DNA of 64,000 bases from Janthinobacterium sp. CG3 (GTDB lineage: Bacteria > Pseudomonadota > Gammaproteobacteria > Burkholderiales > Burkholderiaceae_D): NCBI RefSeq assembly GCF_000344615.1, contig NZ_KB467824.1, forward strand, positions 4,949,227-5,013,226, written 5' to 3'. A program made the translations under genes and the position numbers. Within the stretch, counting starts at the first letter, position 1. The number at the start of each line of letters is the position of its first letter. Positions 28,356 through 36,032 of this stretch are shown piece by piece. The notes under the pieces were generated by a model. The model was not told the origin of the DNA. It searched no databases and worked only from the letters and a program-made list of their open reading frames with translations.

Positions 28356-28446
28356 GGAGAGGTGGATGAGTGGTTGAAGTCGCACGCCTGGAAAGCGTGT
28401 ATAGGTTCATAGCCTATCGGGGGTTCGAATCCCCCTCTCTCCGCCA
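28356..28446 (+). tRNA. tRNA-Ser (GGA)
   Basis: 91 nt with encoded CCA and the long variable arm of class II tRNAs (GGTTCATAGCC). The anticodon arm CGCCTGGAAAGCG gives anticodon GGA, reading UCC/UCU. The acceptor GGAGAG pairs with CTCTCC. It marks the left border of the restriction island, and tRNA-Ser genes are frequent integration sites. Confidence 0.95.
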
Positions 28447-28460
28447 AGGATACAAAAGCA

Positions 28461-28485
28461 AAAGCCACCCTCGGGTGGCTTTTTG
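28461..28485 (+). terminator. terminator of tRNA-Ser
   Basis: AGCCACCC-TC-GGGTGGCT followed by TTTT, 17 bp after the tRNA: a Rho-independent terminator. Confidence 0.85.
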
Positions 28486-28493
28486 CGTTGTAG

Positions 28494-28507
28494 CCTTGGC
28501 GGAGAGA
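28494..28507 (-). repeat. inverted 14-bp copy of the tRNA-Ser 3' end
   Basis: CCTTGGCGGAGAGA is the exact reverse complement of 28,436-28,449 (TCTCTCCGCCAAGG), which covers the last bases of the tRNA including CCA. The two arms enclose the terminator hairpin. Confidence 0.8.
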
Positions 28508-28895
28508 AGCAAGGCCCCTGCGGGCCTTGCGCGGGGGATTCGAAGGGCTGGGCCTACTGGCCCAGCCCTCTCCGAATCGCCCATTTGCCACCGCGTAGCG
28601 GTGGCGCGCCGAAGGCGCAGCGCGCAGCGCAGTTCCTCAAGAGAAATTGTATTTCGGAAATTTTTCGAGTGTCGGCACTACCCATCGCCCCCAGCATGGA
28701 TACTCGCTCCTGCGATCAAAAAGACGGGGCAAAACCAATCAAACTGTCGAACTCGGGCGTCAAACCTACTTGAACTGATCGGCTCCCTAAGCGTGGCCGC
28801 AGACGTTGCAAAGCAGGCACTTGCTGCGCCATAACTGTATGGAGCTGAAGCCGACGCATGGTGGTACTCTCCGGCAAGTAACGGCATCGGCAGCT
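28508..28895. other. hairpin-rich non-coding stretch between tRNA-Ser and the island
   Basis: 388 bp without a supported gene. The first 100 bp contain three strong perfect stems in a row: CAAGGCCC/GGGCCTTG (28,510-28,529), GGGCTGGGCC/GGCCCAGCCC (28,545-28,568) and GCCACCGC/GCGGTGGC (28,587-28,605). The rest (28,630-28,895) has clearly lower GC and shows no gene on either strand. Confidence 0.6.
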
Positions 28896-31800
28896 TCATT
28901 CGACCTTGAAAACCACACTCATCGGGCCACTTCCCATATGGTTTTGGTAGTAAACCATGCCGTGATAAGCGAACGGGGCGGCCTTTCCATTAAATAGTTT
29001 GTTTTCACGCACAAATAGGTGGACGTCAATGCCTCGCTTGGCATGCTCGATTACTTCCTGTCCTCGCTTGCTGTGGGGCGTCGTGGCGTTCTGACTTTGC
29101 CAATGAAAGTGAGTGGCATCGATCCAGTGGTCCAAGTAGCGGTGATCAAGAGCTCTGCCGCTCTTATTGAGTGTCACGAGCAATACATGGGCCTTTTGGT
29201 CGGTGAGCACAACATGCCCCGTATTCCAGTTGCCGGGATTAAACGTACTACTGAACAGCGGCGCAATATCTTCCCGCATGAAGGACCGGCCGAGCGCCAT
29301 GTCGTGCGGACTGATTACGGCCTTGAGGCGGGCCAAGGTACGCATTTCCTCGGTTGCCGGCAGGTCCGCATAGTCGGCGTTATTAGCACGCAACAGGTAG
29401 CTTCCATCGGGCGCTTTCAGCACTACGCGCAACAGATATTGATTCCCCTCGCCTGATGCGTCTTGGCGCTCGATTGCCACGACCGCGCCCGTGATGGATC
29501 CCGCGTTCGTGGCTGAAAGATGTTCGAATAAGAGGAAATCACCATCCCGAATCGGATGTTTCCCCCCGTCCATGGAATTGCCCGATGCGTGGGCGAGAAA
29601 GTGCCGCTCCGGGTCCAGGCGGCCATGCTTAGGTCCGAGCGCGCGGTATTCCTCGGCATCCGCCGTGGCATTCTTGAAATGGCCGCAAGCGATCTTGAGG
29701 TTCGGGAAATAGGGCAATTCCGTGCGATCGATATGTGGTGGGTTCGGAAGCCGGTTGAACTGGATCACATTGCCGGGCGCATCGCCATTGGCGCCACGAA
29801 CTTCATAAGCCGCCAGACGGAAATCGATCAGCTCTTGCAACATGGACTCGAACTCCGCTTGTTGTTCTGGTCGAAGCGTGAATGCGGCTTGAAAAGTGCC
29901 GTCTACAACCTTGAAAAAGGCGCTGGCGTTGGCAGGGCGGTTGCCGCCGATCCAGGCAAGCACGGGGTTTTCTTGCCAATAACGATGCCAGGTAATGTCC
30001 GCCGCGTCCGATACTTGACGCTGCGCATCGGGGAGGTCGACGAGCAAGGCGCGCCGCCGCTGCAACACTTGCCAGGACCGTATGGCCAAGGCCGTGGTCG
30101 GAATCGGGGCGCGCCAACCGTTTAATTCCTGGAAAGCCTCCAACAGCACCATTTTGAAACTCTTGGTCATTTTGGTGGTTTCCACTTCGCGCAAAAAAGA
30201 GCGGTGATCGAGCGCAATGGCTTGTTCGGTCTCGTCGAGGTCGCCGGCGGCGGCGACCAGTTCGAACCAGCTGCCATATTGCTGCCGCAATTTTGGCAAA
30301 CTGGCTCCGGCGCGGTAGAACTCGCTCAGTGTTGGCCGCCGTCCAAAAGCTTCCTTCAGCGCTTGATACTCCTTTTGAATACCGTCGCCGTTGTCGAGGG
30401 CTTTCAGGAATGCTACCAACTGCAAGTCATAATTGATGTAACAACCCTTGGGCAGCTTGAGTCGTTTTTCTTCCAGATCGCGGCCGAATTTTGCCAATTG
30501 TTTGTAGCTGGAACCGATTTCAAACAGCGCCTGCGGCTTGTGCAGGAAACTTTGATGGTTGCCGATGAAGTCGAGCACTACCAATCTCTCCTTGCCCGGG
30601 CTCTTACGCAAGCCCCGACCCAGTTGTTGAAGGAAAAGGATTTTCGATTCGGTCGGCCGCAACATCATCACCGTGTCTATCACGGGCAAGTCCACCCCTT
30701 CATTGAATAGATCAACCGAAAAAATAATCGCGAGGCGGCCATCGCGCAAGCGAGCCAAGGCATCCCCACGGCTCAAGGCTGAGCCCGAATAGACGGCGGC
30801 GCATGTGATCCCGGCTTTAGCGAACTGGAGCGCCATAAAATCGGCGTGGGAAATCGATACGCAAAACGCCAAAGTGCGTTCCTGCTTGTGCAGACGCCAT
30901 GTTTTCAGTGCATGCCGGGCGCGCGCCAGCGTGGCCAGTTTGTTGGATAATTGTTCCGGGTCGAAGCGGCCATTACGCCAAGGCACTTCCGCATAATTGA
31001 CCGATTCGTCGAAAATACCGTAGTAGTGGAACGGCACCAGCAGGTCGGACTCGATTCCGGCGAATAGGCCACAGGTGAACACCAAATTGTCATCGCATAA
31101 CGACAAAATGTCTGATTGGTCCGAGCGGTCAGGCGTCGCGGTCAGTCCGAGCATAAAACGGGGGGCGAAATAGCTCAGCAGGCGCCGATAAGTGGACGCC
31201 GCCGCATGATGGAATTCGTCAACCACGATGTAGTCGAAATGTTGGGGGGAAAAGCGCTCAAGGTGAGTGTTGCGACTGAGTGTCTGGATCGACGCACACA
31301 GCACATCGACCTCAACGTCGCATGTCTTTCCCATATACAGGCCGACTCTTGAGCGTGGTTTAATGCGCAGAAAAGTTTCCGCCGCCTGATTCAAAATTTC
31401 TTCTCGGTGAGCGACGAACAATACTCGTCTGGCGGCGAACTGTTCGGCGTCGAAAGCGGCCAGCCAGGTCTTGCCAAGACCGGTGGCCAATACCACCAAA
31501 CCTCGGCGGAAACCCTCGTCTCTGGTTTCTGAGAGCGCAAGCAAGGCATCTTCTTGGACTCCGGTCGGTAGCGGCGCGGGATCTTGTTCCTGGCTACCGG
31601 GCGCGACTGCGAGCGGCAGTGGAACACGACGGGCCTGGTACTGATCGATCCACGCGTCGGTCAAGGGTACGCAGCGCGCGCTCGCAAATAGCTCGTCGAA
31701 CCTGGCGCGCGCTTCAAGGAAACCTTGCTCCCCGGGATAGTCGATCCGGTAGTTCCATTCCAATCCGTTTTGCAGCGCTTGCCTGCTGATATTGCTGGAA

Positions 31801-32762
31801 CCGATGAAGGCTGTGCCGCATAAGCCGTTTTCGTCATCCAGTTGGGTAAATATATAGGCTTTCAGATGAAAACTGCCACCGGCCGATTCGTATACGCGCA
31901 CCTGTGCGCCTTGCGCTTGAAGCAACATCAATAGCCGCAATGCCTCCGGATCGGTAACATCGAGATAATCGCTGGTTAGCACGCGAACGCGCCCCACCCT
32001 TTCTCTGTTGGCTCCATTGCGCGCCAGCGTACCGTACAAATCGGGAAGCAATAAACGTAGTCCCGTGGCTTTAACGAACGCCACCGCCAGATCGACCTCG
32101 GACGCGCGGTTGATGGCGCCGCAAAGGTGCGGCAGAAAGGGATCGTCGCCACCGGTGATCAACTGCTTTTTTTCTTGCGGTGCACGCAATAGGATGGCGT
32201 TGAGCCACGGCTCGACTCGCCCCGGACGCTGATCGGTCGATAGCCAGCATTCCACGCCAAGCAGATCAGGCAGCGCGGCGAGCCAGCTGCGTAACCGGAT
32301 CTCGCTCGCATCGGTGAAATGTCGGCCATTTTGGACTCGCTCGCCATCGCCACGCTTAAAGCTGAGATATAAAGTCCCACCCGGTTTTAGCGCAGTCCAT
32401 AATTGCGCCAAAATGGCTGGAATATCCAGTGGGGGTAAATGCAATAAGCTGGCGCAGGCCCAAATACCGTCATAGCAGGACTGTTCGCGTACGTCGGAAA
32501 AGCGTCGGACCTCAACGTTTATTCCGGTGTGTTCGGAGGCCATACGAGCCAGTTCGGGCGAGGCGTCGAAGGCCCTTACCCGAAAACCACGGCCGAGAAA
32601 CGCCTGTGTATCCCTGCCGGAGCCGCAACCGGCATCGAGAATCAATCCACCTGGATTGACAGTGGAAAGAAAACGATCGTGTAGGATCGACATATCCACA
32701 TGGATGGTATTGGAAAAAAAAGCGGCTGCGTTTTGATTGTAGTAGGCGAGGGAACTGGTCAT
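28896..32762 (-). CDS. multi-domain fusion: methyltransferase - PLD nuclease - SF2 helicase - S24-like - DUF3427
   Basis: Numbering counts from an alternative TTG start at 32,783; the ATG at 32,762 used here is residue 8. In order: a class I SAM methyltransferase domain (about 10-205, DAGCGSGRDTQAF, no DPPY or PCQ motif of DNA methylases). A phospholipase-D-type nuclease (about 212-365) with HLK at 306-308 and GSSN at 328-331. A superfamily II helicase with ATGLGKT (433-439), DEFH (522-525), TATP (548-551) and QQLGRGLRK (719-727). A linker. A LexA/S24-like domain (about 1030-1155) with SGNSMDGG (Ser 1070) and a possible partner Lys 1123. A C-terminal region (1175-1295) of DUF3427 type, WQSQNATTP and VHLFVRENK. 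PLD-helicase-DUF3427 is the plan of SauUSI-type modification-dependent restriction enzymes; the two extra domains are the oddity. GC is lower than in the housekeeping genes. Confidence 0.85.
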   Translation of the reverse strand: MTSSLAYYNQNAAAFFSNTIHVDMSILHDRFLSTVNPGGLILDAGCGSGRDTQAFLGRGFRVRAFDASPELARMASEHTGINVEVRRFSDVREQSCYDGIWACASLLHLPPLDIPAILAQLWTALKPGGTLYLSFKRGDGERVQNGRHFTDASEIRLRSWLAALPDLLGVECWLSTDQRPGRVEPWLNAILLRAPQEKKQLITGGDDPFLPHLCGAINRASEVDLAVAFVKATGLRLLLPDLYGTLARNGANRERVGRVRVLTSDYLDVTDPEALRLLMLLQAQGAQVRVYESAGGSFHLKAYIFTQLDDENGLCGTAFIGSSNISRQALQNGLEWNYRIDYPGEQGFLEARARFDELFASARCVPLTDAWIDQYQARRVPLPLAVAPGSQEQDPAPLPTGVQEDALLALSETRDEGFRRGLVVLATGLGKTWLAAFDAEQFAARRVLFVAHREEILNQAAETFLRIKPRSRVGLYMGKTCDVEVDVLCASIQTLSRNTHLERFSPQHFDYIVVDEFHHAAASTYRRLLSYFAPRFMLGLTATPDRSDQSDILSLCDDNLVFTCGLFAGIESDLLVPFHYYGIFDESVNYAEVPWRNGRFDPEQLSNKLATLARARHALKTWRLHKQERTLAFCVSISHADFMALQFAKAGITCAAVYSGSALSRGDALARLRDGRLAIIFSVDLFNEGVDLPVIDTVMMLRPTESKILFLQQLGRGLRKSPGKERLVVLDFIGNHQSFLHKPQALFEIGSSYKQLAKFGRDLEEKRLKLPKGCYINYDLQLVAFLKALDNGDGIQKEYQALKEAFGRRPTLSEFYRAGASLPKLRQQYGSWFELVAAAGDLDETEQAIALDHRSFLREVETTKMTKSFKMVLLEAFQELNGWRAPIPTTALAIRSWQVLQRRRALLVDLPDAQRQVSDAADITWHRYWQENPVLAWIGGNRPANASAFFKVVDGTFQAAFTLRPEQQAEFESMLQELIDFRLAAYEVRGANGDAPGNVIQFNRLPNPPHIDRTELPYFPNLKIACGHFKNATADAEEYRALGPKHGRLDPERHFLAHASGNSMDGGKHPIRDGDFLLFEHLSATNAGSITGAVVAIERQDASGEGNQYLLRVVLKAPDGSYLLRANNADYADLPATEEMRTLARLKAVISPHDMALGRSFMREDIAPLFSSTFNPGNWNTGHVVLTDQKAHVLLVTLNKSGRALDHRYLDHWIDATHFHWQSQNATTPHSKRGQEVIEHAKRGIDVHLFVRENKLFNGKAAPFAYHGMVYYQNHMGSGPMSVVFKVE

Positions 32763-32924
32763 ACATGGCCGCTTGAATTTCAATTCCTTAATTATATTCC
32801 TTATTGGTGGCTAGTCAGTTCCATGGAGTGGAAGGTAAGCTGACCATGGCACTTGCAGTGGCTCTATACGTATCCCCCTGGAGTACGATTTCAATCAGGT
32901 AAAATATTCCGCTGCTGCGCACGC

Positions 32925-33704
32925 ATGGCCATCCCTGCCACCAAAATTTCCGGAGCCTTCATTTTGCAATCAATTTACGTGTTCGATTTTCTTCAGACTG
33001 TGTCTACGCAACTCAAAGAAACGCTGGATGGTATGGAGGAGTCGATGTTGAACGGTGTCGCATTGACAACGCTGAATGCGTTTCAGGTTCAAAAGGATTC
33101 GCGCCAAGGCGTCTACGTCCTCCACTACGATGGCGTTCCGGTCTACCTCGGCAAGGCGAACGACGTCAGCGAACGGCTTTCCCAGCATCTCGAAAAACTC
33201 AAGGGGCGCCGGGGCGTCGACCCCGACCGAGTGGGCTACAAGGCGCTCCTGCTGGACAAAAGCATGGGCACGGCAGCGAACGAAGACCTGCTAATTTCCA
33301 TGTACAAAGGCAAGCACGCGAACATGTGGAATGGAGCAGGTTTTGGGCCGAAGGATCCAGGCCAAAACCGCGACACTACCAGACCCGGCTGGTTCGATAG
33401 GCATTTCCCTATTGTCGATGATTTTCCGATCGACCTCGATGCCGGGCCGACGGAGCAAATCGGTTTGGCCGTATTGCTTGGGCTGATGAAAGTGCAGCTT
33501 CCGTACGTTTTCAGATACACGGTTCCAGCTGACCAGCTGGTGCGGCAAATTAGTCTGGCGGGCGTCAAACACGATGCGCGCAGCCTGCTTCAAGCGGCGG
33601 TGACGGTCCTCGGTGCCGGATGGAAGGGCGCCATCATCAGCTATGGCATGGTGCTGTACAAAACGACCAAAGACTACCCTTACGGCGAAGAGTTGACGCC
33701 GTAA
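32925..33704 (+). CDS. Eco29kI-family GIY-YIG restriction endonuclease
   Basis: Type II restriction enzyme with the GIY-YIG fold: GVYVLHYDGVPVYLGKAND, then SERLSQHLEKL with catalytic Arg and His, the acidic residue in TAANEDLLISMYK, and MWNGAGFGPKDPG with NRDTTRPGW as in Eco29kI relatives (Eco29kI itself cuts CCGCGG). ATG 32925 (MAIPATKISGAFILQ) gives 259 residues; the true start may be later, since family similarity begins around FDFLQTVSTQL. It converges with the cytosine methyltransferase gene 58 bp away, completing a restriction-modification pair. Confidence 0.85.
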   Translation: MAIPATKISGAFILQSIYVFDFLQTVSTQLKETLDGMEESMLNGVALTTLNAFQVQKDSRQGVYVLHYDGVPVYLGKANDVSERLSQHLEKLKGRRGVDPDRVGYKALLLDKSMGTAANEDLLISMYKGKHANMWNGAGFGPKDPGQNRDTTRPGWFDRHFPIVDDFPIDLDAGPTEQIGLAVLLGLMKVQLPYVFRYTVPADQLVRQISLAGVKHDARSLLQAAVTVLGAGWKGAIISYGMVLYKTTKDYPYGEELTP

Positions 33705-33762
33705 GCTACGCGGGCGGGGGAGGGGGCCCGAATCCTGCGCCTGCCCGCGTCCCGTTTCGTTG

Positions 33763-34932
33763 CTATCCCTTCCGCAACATTTTGCACACCCCGTTGGCGA
33801 CGACCGCCGCCAGTTTCACCGGCACGGCGTTGCCCAGCTGGCGCATGGTCTCCGACCACCCCCCCTCGAAGATGAAGCTGTCCGGGAAGGTCTGGATGCG
33901 CGCCGATTCCCGCACCGTGAAGTAGCGCACCGAGCCGTCGTGCCGGCGCAGCATGTTTTCGCCGCCGGGCACGCCGTGGTCGCCCGCCTTCAGCGCCTTG
34001 GCCGGCTCGTCGAGCGGGCTGCCGGTGTGCCCCGCGTACGAGCGCGCGCCCGGCTGGAAGCGGTGCGCCTGCACCAGTTCCTTGCCCGGGTGCTTTTCCG
34101 GGTCCGGCAGGTCGGAGATGGCGTCGCGCACGGTTTCCCACGGCAGCGCCAAGGCGTCCGGGTCGGCGTCGGCCAGGATGGCGAGCTTGCGCTCCAGGCC
34201 GTCCGGCTTGGCCGGGCGGTTTTTCGCCGCCACGCGGTGGCGCGCCCAGTATTCGCCATTGCCCCACTGCGACAGCAGCAGCGCGTCGTGGCTGTGCGTT
34301 TCCTCCGGGAATACCCAGTCCAGGCCGAGGTCTTCGCGGAAGCCGACGATGAACACGCGCATGCGTTTTTGCGGCACGCCGAAGTTGGCGGCGTTGACCA
34401 GCTTGGACACGACGCGGTACTCGCGCTTGCCGCCCTTGGCCTTGTGCTTTTCCAGCCGGGCCAGGTGGTCCAGCCATTCCTCCTTGGCCTTCGGCTGCAG
34501 CGACGGGTATTCGAGTTGCAGCAGGATGTAGTTGAAGTAGTTGGCGAACGCGGCGCGCGTCAGGCCGCGGACGTTTTCGAAGACGAAGGCGCGCGGGCGC
34601 ACCTCGCGCACCGCGCGGATCGCCTGCGGGAACATGTCGCGCTCGTCGAGGAAGCCGCCGTGCTTGCCGCCCATAGAGAAGGGTTGGCAGGGCGGGCCGC
34701 CGGTGACCAGGTCGAGGCCCTGGTGGCCGCCGTACAGGAATTGGCGGACGTCGCCCTCGGTGACGTCCGGCCAGTGGCTCATCGGGGCGACCAGTTTGAG
34801 CTTGTTGTTGCGCAGCGTCTCGCAGGCGTGGCTGTTCCACTCGACCACCGCGCGGTGGTCCACGTTTTGCCCGGAGAAGCCCATGGCGAGCCCGCCGGCG
34901 CCGGCGAACAGTTCAATCGATTCAAGCTTCAC
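33763..34932 (-). CDS. DNA (cytosine-5) methyltransferase
   Basis: 389 residues carrying all main motifs of 5mC methylases: I (ELFAGAGGLAMGF), IV with the catalytic Cys (VTGGPPCQPFS), VI (FVFENVRGL), VIII (NAANFGVPQKRMRVFIVG), a target-recognition stretch (about 230-310), IX (RYFTVRESARIQTFPDSF) and X (RQLGNAVPV). It is expected to protect the sites cut by the convergent Eco29kI-like enzyme. The next gene on the other side is a Vsr endonuclease, which repairs T:G mismatches arising from 5mC deamination, consistent with a 5mC product. Confidence 0.93.
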   Translation of the reverse strand: MKLESIELFAGAGGLAMGFSGQNVDHRAVVEWNSHACETLRNNKLKLVAPMSHWPDVTEGDVRQFLYGGHQGLDLVTGGPPCQPFSMGGKHGGFLDERDMFPQAIRAVREVRPRAFVFENVRGLTRAAFANYFNYILLQLEYPSLQPKAKEEWLDHLARLEKHKAKGGKREYRVVSKLVNAANFGVPQKRMRVFIVGFREDLGLDWVFPEETHSHDALLLSQWGNGEYWARHRVAAKNRPAKPDGLERKLAILADADPDALALPWETVRDAISDLPDPEKHPGKELVQAHRFQPGARSYAGHTGSPLDEPAKALKAGDHGVPGGENMLRRHDGSVRYFTVRESARIQTFPDSFIFEGGWSETMRQLGNAVPVKLAAVVANGVCKMLRKG

Positions 34933-35438
34933 GGCGCCGCCCCTTAGCGTCGGCCGTCGGGGTCTGTGGCGCCGTCGGGCCTTGGGTGCCGCCGCGGCGG
35001 CGCTGGGGCGGGTGTGGGGTGCGTGACTTGTTCAAAGCGTTTACTTCTTCCGGTAGTGTGTGTTTGTGCGGGCGGCGCACCGGTTGGCGGGCCGTCGGGA
35101 AACGGGCCGCTAGGTGGGCTGCGGGCTCGGCCCCGCCAGGCAGGCAGTAGTATAAAGCACCGCCGCCGGGAAAGTTCCATTTGCCTGTTTTGTGGCAATT
35201 TATTTTAGGATTTATTATACTGTATTTATATACAGTTATCGTTAAAGCCAGAGGCGTAGTGCAGGGGGCAGACCCGAGGGGCGGACTGCCGCACAGTTGA
35301 AAAATTCCGCTGGAAATCGAAAAGGGAGGGGCACATAATATTGCGGTGCCGGGCGTGGCGGCTTTCGTGGATGAAATGGCGGGATGGACGATTGTTTTTG
35401 TTTTGGGCTAGGCGGTCGGCTGGCGGTGCGGGGCGCTT
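34933..35438. other. 506-bp gap between methyltransferase and vsr
   Basis: No supported gene. 34,933-35,160 is GC-rich with no coherent protein in any frame. 35,165-35,250 is a sharply AT-rich block containing a LexA-type box overlapping a TATAAT hexamer. 35,250-35,290 contains GGGGCAGACCC-like dispersed sequence. The block looks like the intact control region of a gene that is no longer present, or a distant promoter for the methyltransferase. Confidence 0.6.
35220..35235. promoter_or_regulatory. LexA (SOS) box
   Basis: CTGTATTTATATACAG, extended to ACTGTAT-TTAT-ATACAGT, matches the proteobacterial SOS consensus CTGTATATATATACAG in 15 of 16 positions and is symmetric. On the minus strand TATAAT (35,213-35,218) directly follows, so LexA binding would occlude a leftward promoter about 280 bp before the methyltransferase start. 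On the plus strand vsr starts 203 bp downstream. Confidence 0.75.
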
Positions 35439-35858
35439 GTGGTTGACACGGTCGACGTCGCGACAAGGAGCGACATCATGTCGTGCGTCCGCTCGAAAAA
35501 CACGGGGCCGGAAATGCTGGTGCGGCGCCTGGTGTTCGCGGCCGGCTACCGCTACCGTTTGCACGGGAAGAAGCTGCCGGGGAAGCCGGATCTGGTGTTC
35601 GCCGGCCGGCGCAAGGTCATCTTTGTGCACGGCTGCTTCTGGCATTTGCATGCGGGCTGTTTGCTTGGCGCGCGCATACCGAAGTCGCGGGTTGATTTTT
35701 GGACGCTGAAGCTGGAGGGAAACCGGCGCCGCGACGAGGCGAACCGCGCGGCGCTTGCCGGATTGGGCTGGAAGGTGTTGACGCTGTGGGAATGCGAGTT
35801 GGCCGACCATGACGCGCTTCGCGCCAAGGTCTTCGCGTTCCTCGACGGTCCCGGCTGA
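35439..35858 (+). CDS. vsr: very short patch repair endonuclease
   Basis: Nicks 5' of T in T:G mismatches created by deamination of 5-methylcytosine. 139 residues with TRSDIMSCVRSKNTGPEMLV, YRYRLHGKKLPGKPDLVFAG holding the catalytic Asp, KVIFVHGCFWHLHAGC (zinc/catalytic region), and a C-terminal GWKVLTLWECEL. Start is GTG 35439; the first ATG (35,478) would cut into the conserved SKNT motif. Its presence beside the cytosine methyltransferase fits the usual partnership. Confidence 0.92.
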   Translation: MVDTVDVATRSDIMSCVRSKNTGPEMLVRRLVFAAGYRYRLHGKKLPGKPDLVFAGRRKVIFVHGCFWHLHAGCLLGARIPKSRVDFWTLKLEGNRRRDEANRAALAGLGWKVLTLWECELADHDALRAKVFAFLDGPG

Positions 35859-36032
35859 GCCGCTCAATTGGCCGCCGCGCCAACCTATTGTGTAGGCTTG
35901 CTTTCGATCCTGGCATTGCATGTTGAAAAACGCTTCGCGACGCCCGGTCGGCGGTCGATTGCGTAGGTCGTCGAGTGCGTGCTGACGAATACCAGGTTTT
36001 TGGTCAGCGGGACATCACTGGCAAAGCGGGTA

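What the first reader, a model, noticed from the sequence alone, without database searches (positions are those of the whole stretch)
28896..32762. Five-domain fusion: SAM methyltransferase + PLD nuclease + helicase + S24-like + DUF3427
PLD nuclease-helicase-DUF3427 is the known plan of SauUSI-type modification-dependent restriction. Here an extra class I methyltransferase-like domain is fused at the N-terminus, without DPPY or PCQ motifs of DNA methylases, and a LexA/S24-like domain with candidate Ser 1070/Lys 1123 lies before the C-terminal domain. A single chain carrying a nuclease, a motor, a possible self-cleaving switch and a small-molecule-type methyltransferase could be an unusual regulated defence effector: damage or phage could trigger autocleavage of the S24 domain, which would separate the reader domain from the motor and nuclease.
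Basis: partly seen in the sequence, partly recalled or inferred. Interest (0 to 1): 0.82.

Follow-up and report, generated by a model that had tools for sequence, protein, structure and literature searches.

The report
Restriction motor with methyltransferase and LexA-like domain
This bacterial gene encodes a DNA-shredding restriction enzyme of a known kind (SauUSI) that also carries a small-molecule-type methyltransferase and a LexA-like domain whose cutting site is kept but whose catalytic lysine is replaced by arginine, a recurrent variant not described in the papers that could be searched.

Summary
The fusion is real: one intact frame, 28896-32762 (-), with Methyltransf_25, PLD, SF2 helicase, Peptidase_S24 and DUF3427. 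It is not a one-off: 41 one-frame copies were aligned, mostly from beta- and gammaproteobacteria. PLD, motor and SRA reader follow SauUSI, including the SRA Trp. The methyltransferase is not part of all DUF3427 helicases, but it goes with this branch: fused, adjacent, or in a neighbouring frame in 61 of 64 loci with the S24 domain. In one lineage the fused copy has been replaced by a separate, distantly related methyltransferase. Its nearest solved structure is RPA2492, of unknown function. Self-cleavage is therefore unlikely, and relatives without SRA keep the S24. I read it as a type IV-like restriction enzyme with an obligatory methyltransferase partner and a non-cleaving LexA-like module. 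The methyltransferase substrate is unknown.

The parts
28896..32762 (-). whole gene, 1288 aa from ATG (1295 aa from TTG 32783)
32169..32762 (-). N-terminal class I SAM methyltransferase domain, residues 8-205
   Evidence: Pfam; AF2 model pLDDT 96.2, best match 3e23 RPA2492 Z 30.1; motif I residues D50-G54, R57, D58 41 of 41, S55 38 and G56 39 of 41
31635..32114 (-). PLD nuclease domain, about residues 224-383; HxK at 31860-31868
   Evidence: Pfam; H306, K308, N331, E342 41 of 41
30549..31571 (-). SF2 helicase-like ATPase, about residues 405-745
   Evidence: Pfam; phmmer to SauUSI 7clg over residues 206-841 1.5e-91
29739..30548 (-). helical coupler, about residues 746-1015 (sub-threshold HNH_repeat at 805-847)
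29307..29735 (-). LexA/S24-like domain, about residues 1017-1159
   Evidence: Pfam; Foldseek 2hnf 4.6e-5; VIA LexA 1jhe Z 8.5, rmsd 4.2, 121 aligned
29682..29690 (-). Ala1032-Cys1033-Gly1034, at the LexA/UmuD cleavage-site position
   Evidence: invariant 64 of 64; aligned with the cleavage site of S24 proteins
29574..29576 (-). Ser1070, nucleophile position
   Evidence: 64 of 64
29427..29429 (-). Arg1119, at the position of the catalytic lysine
   Evidence: hhalign; R 64 of 64 here, K 29 of 29 in S24 proteins of relatives
29415..29417 (-).
28899..29309 (-). SRA reader (C-terminal half of DUF3427), residues 1159-1295; Trp1228 at 29100-29102
   Evidence: Pfam; profile alignment to SauUSI 806-918 puts W1228 on W868; SUVH5/6 SRA Z about 10

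Best explanation
It is a SauUSI-like, ATP-driven, modification-dependent restriction enzyme with two extra parts. Inferred cycle: the C-terminal SRA flips out and reads a modified cytosine, the SF2 motor fires and translocates, and the dimeric PLD nuclease shreds the invading DNA. The N-terminal methyltransferase is an active enzyme of the small-molecule/RNA type and an obligatory partner of this helicase branch, whether fused or encoded next door; its substrate is unknown. The LexA-like domain between coupler and SRA keeps the cleavage-site segment and the serine but has Arg for the dyad lysine, so it most likely does not cut itself and serves as a conformational or docking module, perhaps for RecA filaments, that gates the motor. 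Shown by tools: domains, folds, conserved residues, association with the methyltransferase. Inferred: restriction activity, modified-cytosine target, methyltransferase activity, lack of self-cleavage, role of the S24 and of the methyltransferase.
For: PADLOC mREase_IV 1e-108; SauUSI 7clg 1.5e-91 over PLD to coupler; SRA aligned to SauUSI with W868 = W1228, invariant in 36 of 36; SRA folds Z 9-10 and 7clg Z 12.9. PLD HxK 41 of 41. Methyltransferase: motif I conserved, model nearest 3e23 Z 30.1, then small-molecule, tRNA and peptide enzymes. Association: 7 of 369 class genomes carry this S24; 6 of the 7 have the methyltransferase fused (2) or adjacent (4), the seventh ends at a contig edge. Of 64 S24 loci: 47 fused, 9 adjacent, 5 with the gene in two frames, 3 none, of which 2 are short slices (duplicates are listed under Tried and rejected). 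Helicase tree: one branch (support 95) holds 41 of the 54 rows, and 40 of these 41 are methyltransferase-linked; the exception is the HIT-fused L110. L043 lies among fused rows yet has a separate subfamily-B methyltransferase; B-linked S24 helicases as one clade are rejected, p-AU 4.3e-6. S24: ACG, Ser, Arg 64 of 64. Neighbours: C5 methylase and Eco29kI-like nuclease.
Against: No activity is known to me for any member. Relatives mostly from Lachnospiraceae and L052 have no SRA or S24, and others have S24 without SRA, so modification reading is not the constant part of the family. Three methyltransferase-linked helicases (L073, L104, L106) lie outside the branch of 41, so the link is not confined to it. 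A C5 methylase gene lies next door, so a general 5mC reader would risk self-attack. The invariant ACG and Ser could mean that cleavage still happens under some condition with Arg as base. S24 confidence in the model is moderate (pLDDT about 52-81 by block), sequence-only hits to solved S24 structures were weak (best UmuD, E 0.022), and the residue match rests on one hhalign (probability 94). The 7clg match spans domains at rmsd 17.9.
Confidence: 0.6

Rival explanations
1. One reading: DNA damage or phage infection triggers S24 self-cleavage at Cys1033-Gly1034, separating the SRA reader from motor and nuclease.
For: LexA/lambda-CI fold including the cleavage-site region; Ala-Cys-Gly and Ser invariant in 64 of 64 rows.
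Confidence: 0.12
2. Restriction-modification: the methyltransferase marks self DNA in a non-canonical way and the PLD motor (or an HNH nuclease in sister loci) attacks unmarked DNA.
For: The methyltransferase pairs with PLD motors and with HNH_4 nucleases (a separate nuclease gene in L058 with the motor, in L178 with no motor in the 8.6 kb seen; a methyltransferase-HNH_4 protein beside the motor in L104, L106) and is swapped between subfamilies, the pattern of an M partner.
Against: No DNA-methylase motif; structural neighbours shown are small-molecule, tRNA and peptide methyltransferases, best RPA2492; the separate methyltransferases are only about 200 aa, with no room for a usual target-recognition domain.
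Confidence: 0.15
3. House-cleaning: the methyltransferase disarms a modified nucleotide released by shredding, or a small-molecule signal, in the slot that Nudix and HIT enzymes fill in sister SauUSI-like systems.
For: Nudix gene directly beside the SauUSI-like genes with the fullest DUF3427 match seen (L099, and the second helicase of L063), HIT domain fused at the same N-terminal place in L110; small-molecule-type fold; MutT neighbours of SauUSI homologues noted in PMC7641849 (passage).
Against: No substrate known; the methyltransferase also pairs with HNH_4 nucleases and occurs away from the motor.
Confidence: 0.15
4. Not a defence enzyme but a repair helicase (RadD/XPB-like) with accessory domains.
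For: Hits of the motor to RadD and XPB models far below their cut-offs and to RadD and XPB structures.
Against: The SauUSI match is far stronger, a PLD nuclease and SRA are present, the distribution is patchy, and a C5 methylase and restriction nuclease lie beside it.
Confidence: 0.04

Closest known systems
[quoted passage not shown] PMC7913695, passages)
   Same: PLD HxK nuclease, SF2 motor, helical coupler, C-terminal SRA with the stacking Trp
   Different: SauUSI has four domains only; no methyltransferase, no S24 between coupler and SRA
LexA / UmuD / lambda CI (peptidase family S24)
   Same: fold, cleavage-site (Ala/Cys)-Gly, nucleophile Ser
   Different: dyad Lys replaced by invariant Arg; embedded in a restriction motor
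RPA2492 (3e23), uncharacterised SAM methyltransferase
   Same: 33% identity over 193 residues, Z 30.1
   Different: the solved RPA2492 is a 211-residue chain of its own, function unknown
Type ISP / type IIG restriction-modification enzymes (LlaBIII, LlaGI, MmeI)
   Same: methyltransferase in one chain with nuclease, and with a motor in type ISP (PMC7913695 passage)
   Different: their methyltransferase is a DNA-adenine enzyme with a target-recognition domain (recalled); here it is of the small-molecule type at the N-terminus
Schlafen group 3 helicase with C-terminal S24 (seen here in L162)
   Same: S24 domain at the C-terminal side of a helicase
   Different: different helicase family, and the S24 there shows Lys at the dyad position by eye

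Membership tests
SauUSI-like type IV restriction enzymes | PLD nuclease with HxK motif | tested here: met
   Pfam PLDc_2; H306, K308 41 of 41
SauUSI-like type IV restriction enzymes | SF2 helicase-like ATPase following the PLD domain | tested here: met
SauUSI-like type IV restriction enzymes | C-terminal SRA target-recognition domain with base-stacking Trp | tested here: met
   W1228 36 of 36
SauUSI-like type IV restriction enzymes | ATP-dependent cleavage of 5mC/5hmC DNA | not testable with these tools
   needs an assay
Peptidase family S24 (self-cleaving) | LexA-like fold | tested here: met
Peptidase family S24 (self-cleaving) | nucleophile serine and (Ala/Cys)-Gly cleavage site | tested here: met
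   64 of 64
Peptidase family S24 (self-cleaving) | catalytic lysine of the Ser-Lys dyad | tested here: not met
   Arg at that position in 64 of 64 rows
Peptidase family S24 (self-cleaving) | autocleavage | not testable with these tools
   needs an assay
DNA methyltransferase of a restriction-modification system | motif IV (D/N/S)PP(Y/F/W/H) or a Pro-Cys motif in the domain | tested here: not met
   pattern scan of 36 subfamily-A rows and 7 subfamily-B rows: one match (L078), in the unaligned stretch before the domain
   20 DUF3427 loci of 398 genomes: fused in 2, adjacent in 3, not seen in 15, of which L108, L112, L115, L116 and L117 are partial frames and some slices are short

The most novel reading that the evidence does not exclude
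A separate class of defence system: an exchangeable SAM methyltransferase that is not a DNA-base methylase is the constant partner of a PLD motor nuclease (and in other loci of an HNH_4 nuclease), with interchangeable C-termini (nothing, S24, S24+SRA). Here a LexA-like domain locked by a Lys-to-Arg change senses RecA filaments or DNA state without cutting itself and gates the motor, while the methyltransferase makes or removes the signal that tells self from invader.
Probability: 0.2. Interest if true: 0.85.

Novelty: new variant of a known kind. Interest (0 to 1): 0.62.

Why it matters
SauUSI-type enzymes are strong barriers to gene transfer (PMC7913695, passages). A conserved branch that nearly always carries a small-molecule-type methyltransferase, to the point of replacing a lost one by a distant relative, means these restriction motors may do more than read and cut. 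The LexA-like domain with cleavage site and Ser kept but Lys replaced by Arg is a natural test of whether S24 folds can act as sensors without proteolysis. Both questions can be tested with point mutants in a laboratory strain.

Tried and rejected
Self-cleavage on Lys1123: rejected as the dyad residue. Methyltransferase as a standard DUF3427 part: rejected. The neighbouring C5 methylase as a fixed partner of the fusion: rejected; close matches (76-79%) in 3 of the 78 scan loci (L003, L004, L005), weak partial ones in two more (L047, L075). Other constant partners: clustering of 835 flank ORFs gave no common one. The largest group, 13 loci at scattered distances, holds GGDEF proteins in the three members tested; a group of 6 loci is an HNH_2 gene within about 200 bases of the match in the one member tested, L045; a group of 5 is gyrB in the one member tested, L017. 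Viral contigs: one scan, no match to the six peptide patterns. The Orc/Cdc6 winged-helix resemblance of the coupler (Z about 9) is in the range that helical domains reach by chance. No paper describing this domain set was seen in the listings (searches list 20 of 671 and 10 of 48); a LexA K156R search gave none; led to PMC10020695; (MADS) gave nothing relevant. Subscription papers are mostly not held.

Limits: the locus scan used six peptide patterns, one in the methyltransferase, so its share of fused copies is biased; the samples are not chosen by the methyltransferase but cover only Pseudomonadota and one class. The 64 S24 rows hold duplicates: L001 and L118 are the window's own gene, and L163 and L164 lie on contigs of the same length as L039 and L017. 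Of the 78 scan loci, the 41-row alignment used the 40 with a long single frame plus the query. The tree used 54 of the 93 scored helicase rows (most fused copies and near-duplicates left out), quick method; the label of L063_4373 there comes from a methyltransferase that belongs with its neighbour L063_8552, and in L067 one gene lies between methyltransferase and motor. Of the 29 reference S24 proteins 28 have Ser and one Cys at the nucleophile position.
Full report
Observation. The methyltransferase, PLD, helicase, S24 and DUF3427 hits pass the Pfam gathering scores. The DUF3427 match covers only profile positions 124-245 of 280; alignment with SauUSI shows that this half is the SRA reader, so the order is methyltransferase, PLD, SF2 motor, coupler, S24, SRA. 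PMC7913695 (passages) gives the SauUSI order as PLD, ATPase, coupler, SRA, and names Trp868 as the residue that could stack on the flipped base; W1228 aligns with it and is invariant in 36 of 36 rows.

How common it is. A scan of genome contigs gave 78 loci. Forty hold the chain in one long frame and were aligned with the query, 41 rows. In others the methyltransferase is a separate gene next to the motor gene: L045, L046, L051, L052, L055, and most of L056-L074; in L067 one gene lies between them, and in L068 and L073 the methyltransferase comes after the motor. A search with the S24 alignment, not chosen by the methyltransferase, found the domain in 7 of 369 class genomes; 2 have the methyltransferase fused (own genome and G723), 4 have it adjacent (G015, G553, G499, G601; in G499 on the opposite strand), and G708 stops at a contig edge. 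Among 20 loci with DUF3427 from 398 Pseudomonadota genomes, the three with S24 all have the methyltransferase (L118 and L111 fused, L109 adjacent); of the 17 without S24, two (L104, L106) have a separate methyltransferase-HNH_4 protein next door and none shows it fused, though five of the 17 are partial frames. Over all loci held, 64 carry the S24: 47 fused, 9 adjacent, 5 with the gene in two frames, 3 none (L001 a slice of the own gene, L160 at a contig end, L040 lacking its 5' part). Some of these are duplicates, listed under Tried and rejected.

A swapped partner. The methyltransferases fall into subfamily A (the fused type, also in the Lachnospiraceae set) and subfamily B. The B domains of L104 and L106 are 39-46% identical to the B genes of L043, L045, L046, L051 and L109 and 19-32% identical to A copies. 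In the helicase tree one branch with support 95 holds 41 of 54 rows; 40 of these have a methyltransferase fused or nearby, and the exception is L110, which has a HIT domain fused at the same N-terminal place. Outside that branch are 13 rows, mostly SRA-only enzymes without the methyltransferase; three of them have one nearby (L073 with A, L104 and L106 with B-HNH_4), and a fourth, L063_4373, is labelled so only through its neighbour's gene. L043 lies inside the fused group but has no fused domain and carries a subfamily-B gene directly upstream. A tree that keeps the seven B-linked S24 helicases together is rejected (p-AU 4.3e-6). The partner has thus been replaced while the association stayed. 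The trees are quick ones, with some long branches.

What the methyltransferase looks like. The domain model is confident (mean pLDDT 96.2). Its best structural match is RPA2492 (3e23, Z 30.1, rmsd 1.6, 193 aligned, 33% identity); the next rows, Z 19-22, are enzymes on toxoflavin, crocagin, tRNA (METTL6), UbiG substrates, peptides and others. A pattern scan for DNA-methylase motifs found none inside the domain in 36 A rows and 7 B rows. Motif I is conserved (D50-G54, R57, D58 41 of 41; S55 38, G56 39), as are many polar residues, which suggests activity. A homologue sits on an Allochromatium plasmid with an HNH_4 nuclease gene about 1.2 kb away and no PLD motor in the 8.6 kb seen; that nuclease is related (32% identity, about 1e-43) to the HNH_4 gene beside methyltransferase and motor in L058. 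Some sister SauUSI-like enzymes have a Nudix gene next door (L099, and the second helicase of L063); PMC7641849 (figure legend passage) mentions MutT homologues beside SauUSI homologues.

The LexA-like domain. The model of residues 735-1295 (mean pLDDT 76.9, lower in the S24 part) matches lambda repressor fragment 2hnf (Foldseek 4.6e-5) and LexA 1jhe (Z 8.5, rmsd 4.2, 121 aligned, 22% identity); the matched part begins before the cleavage-site region. By sequence alone the S24 profile reached only UmuD entries in the PDB, weakly (best E 0.022), with Cys-Gly set on Cys-Gly. Profile alignment with 29 S24 proteins from relative genomes (probability 94, 104 columns) sets Ala-Cys-Gly 1032-1034 on their cleavage site, Ser1070 on the nucleophile and Arg1119 on the catalytic lysine. 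In 64 rows ACG, Ser1070 and Arg1119 never vary, and Lys1123 is E in L053 and R in L043; the 29 reference proteins all have Lys and Ala-Gly, and 28 have the Ser. PMC10020695 (passages) describes Ser119 and Lys156 of LexA and that the lysine is deprotonated for cleavage. Arginine is a poor base, so self-cleavage should be weak or absent; this is inference. The cleavage-site segment may still dock in the cleft. Several relatives end after the S24 (L051, L055, L157, L159, L177), others have neither S24 nor SRA (L052 and most of the L056-L074 set).

Surroundings. The gene lies 450 bases after a tRNA-Ser gene on the other strand, in a stretch of lower G+C (0.53-0.58 in 1-kb windows, against 0.59-0.69 on the two sides), next to an Eco29kI-like GIY-YIG nuclease (Pfam hit below its cut-off) and a C5 methylase. 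In the PF00717 search of 21 relatives, of the five largest frames looked at, those of the own genome, G405, G406 and G408 proved to be this family and that of G412 (L162) did not. Elsewhere neighbours include ABC-three-component genes and AIPR.

Mechanism. I commit to a SauUSI-type cycle with a modified-cytosine reader, a methyltransferase that is needed for function, and an S24 that docks or gates without cutting. The core is well supported by homology; the roles of the two extra domains are inference. The weak point is the unknown methyltransferase substrate. The next weak point is that SRA-less relatives keep methyltransferase and motor, so the partnership may be older or more basic than modification reading.

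Papers. PMC7913695, PMC3874153, PMC7159879, PMC12839542, PMC7641849, PMC10020695 and PMC12707154 were seen as passages only; none of the passages seen mentions this architecture. Other papers were seen only in search listings.

Noticed in passing
window 32853-34932: Eco29kI-like GIY-YIG nuclease (+) and C5 cytosine methylase (-) next to the fusion; the methylase would put 5mC into the host DNA that an SRA enzyme might read. Close methylase orthologues (76-79%) lie near the fusion in L003, L004, L005.
   Followed up: partly
window 35226-35921: 231-aa ORF without Pfam, NCBIfam or PADLOC match, upstream of the C5 methylase; partial relatives (40-47%) in L003, L004 and L047.
   Followed up: no
window 28356-28580: Behind the tRNA-Ser gene lies an inverted partial copy of the tRNA 3' end; similar sequence recurs in many relatives.
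   Followed up: no
L110 6370-9960: HIT-PLD-helicase-SRA fusion: HIT domain in the place of the methyltransferase.
   Followed up: partly
L104 3789-5501, L106 6742-8469: 571/576-aa proteins, subfamily-B methyltransferase fused to an HNH_4 nuclease, beside SauUSI-like genes.
   Followed up: partly
L178 1687-4582 (Allochromatium vinosum plasmid pALVIN01): Subfamily-A methyltransferase near an HNH_4 nuclease, no PLD motor in the stretch seen.
   Followed up: partly
L162 5396-7801: Schlafen-group-3 helicase with a C-terminal S24 domain that by eye keeps Ser and Lys.
   Followed up: no
L045 11874-12659, and the related neighbours of L006, L016, L020, L025, L075: HNH_2 nuclease gene (PADLOC PDLC04132; only the L045 copy was scanned) close to the methyltransferase-motor genes.
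   Followed up: no
L017 5302-7932, and related ORFs in L002, L021, L039, L037: gyrB (only the L017 copy was scanned) directly upstream of the fused gene in several Oxalobacteraceae, a possible insertion place.
   Followed up: no
L039, L049, L053, L161: The fused gene is split over two frames, in L039 near residue 805; not mended.
   Followed up: no
window residues 861-996: Part of the coupler resembles Orc/Cdc6 winged-helix domains (Z about 9), within the range of chance for helical domains.
   Followed up: no
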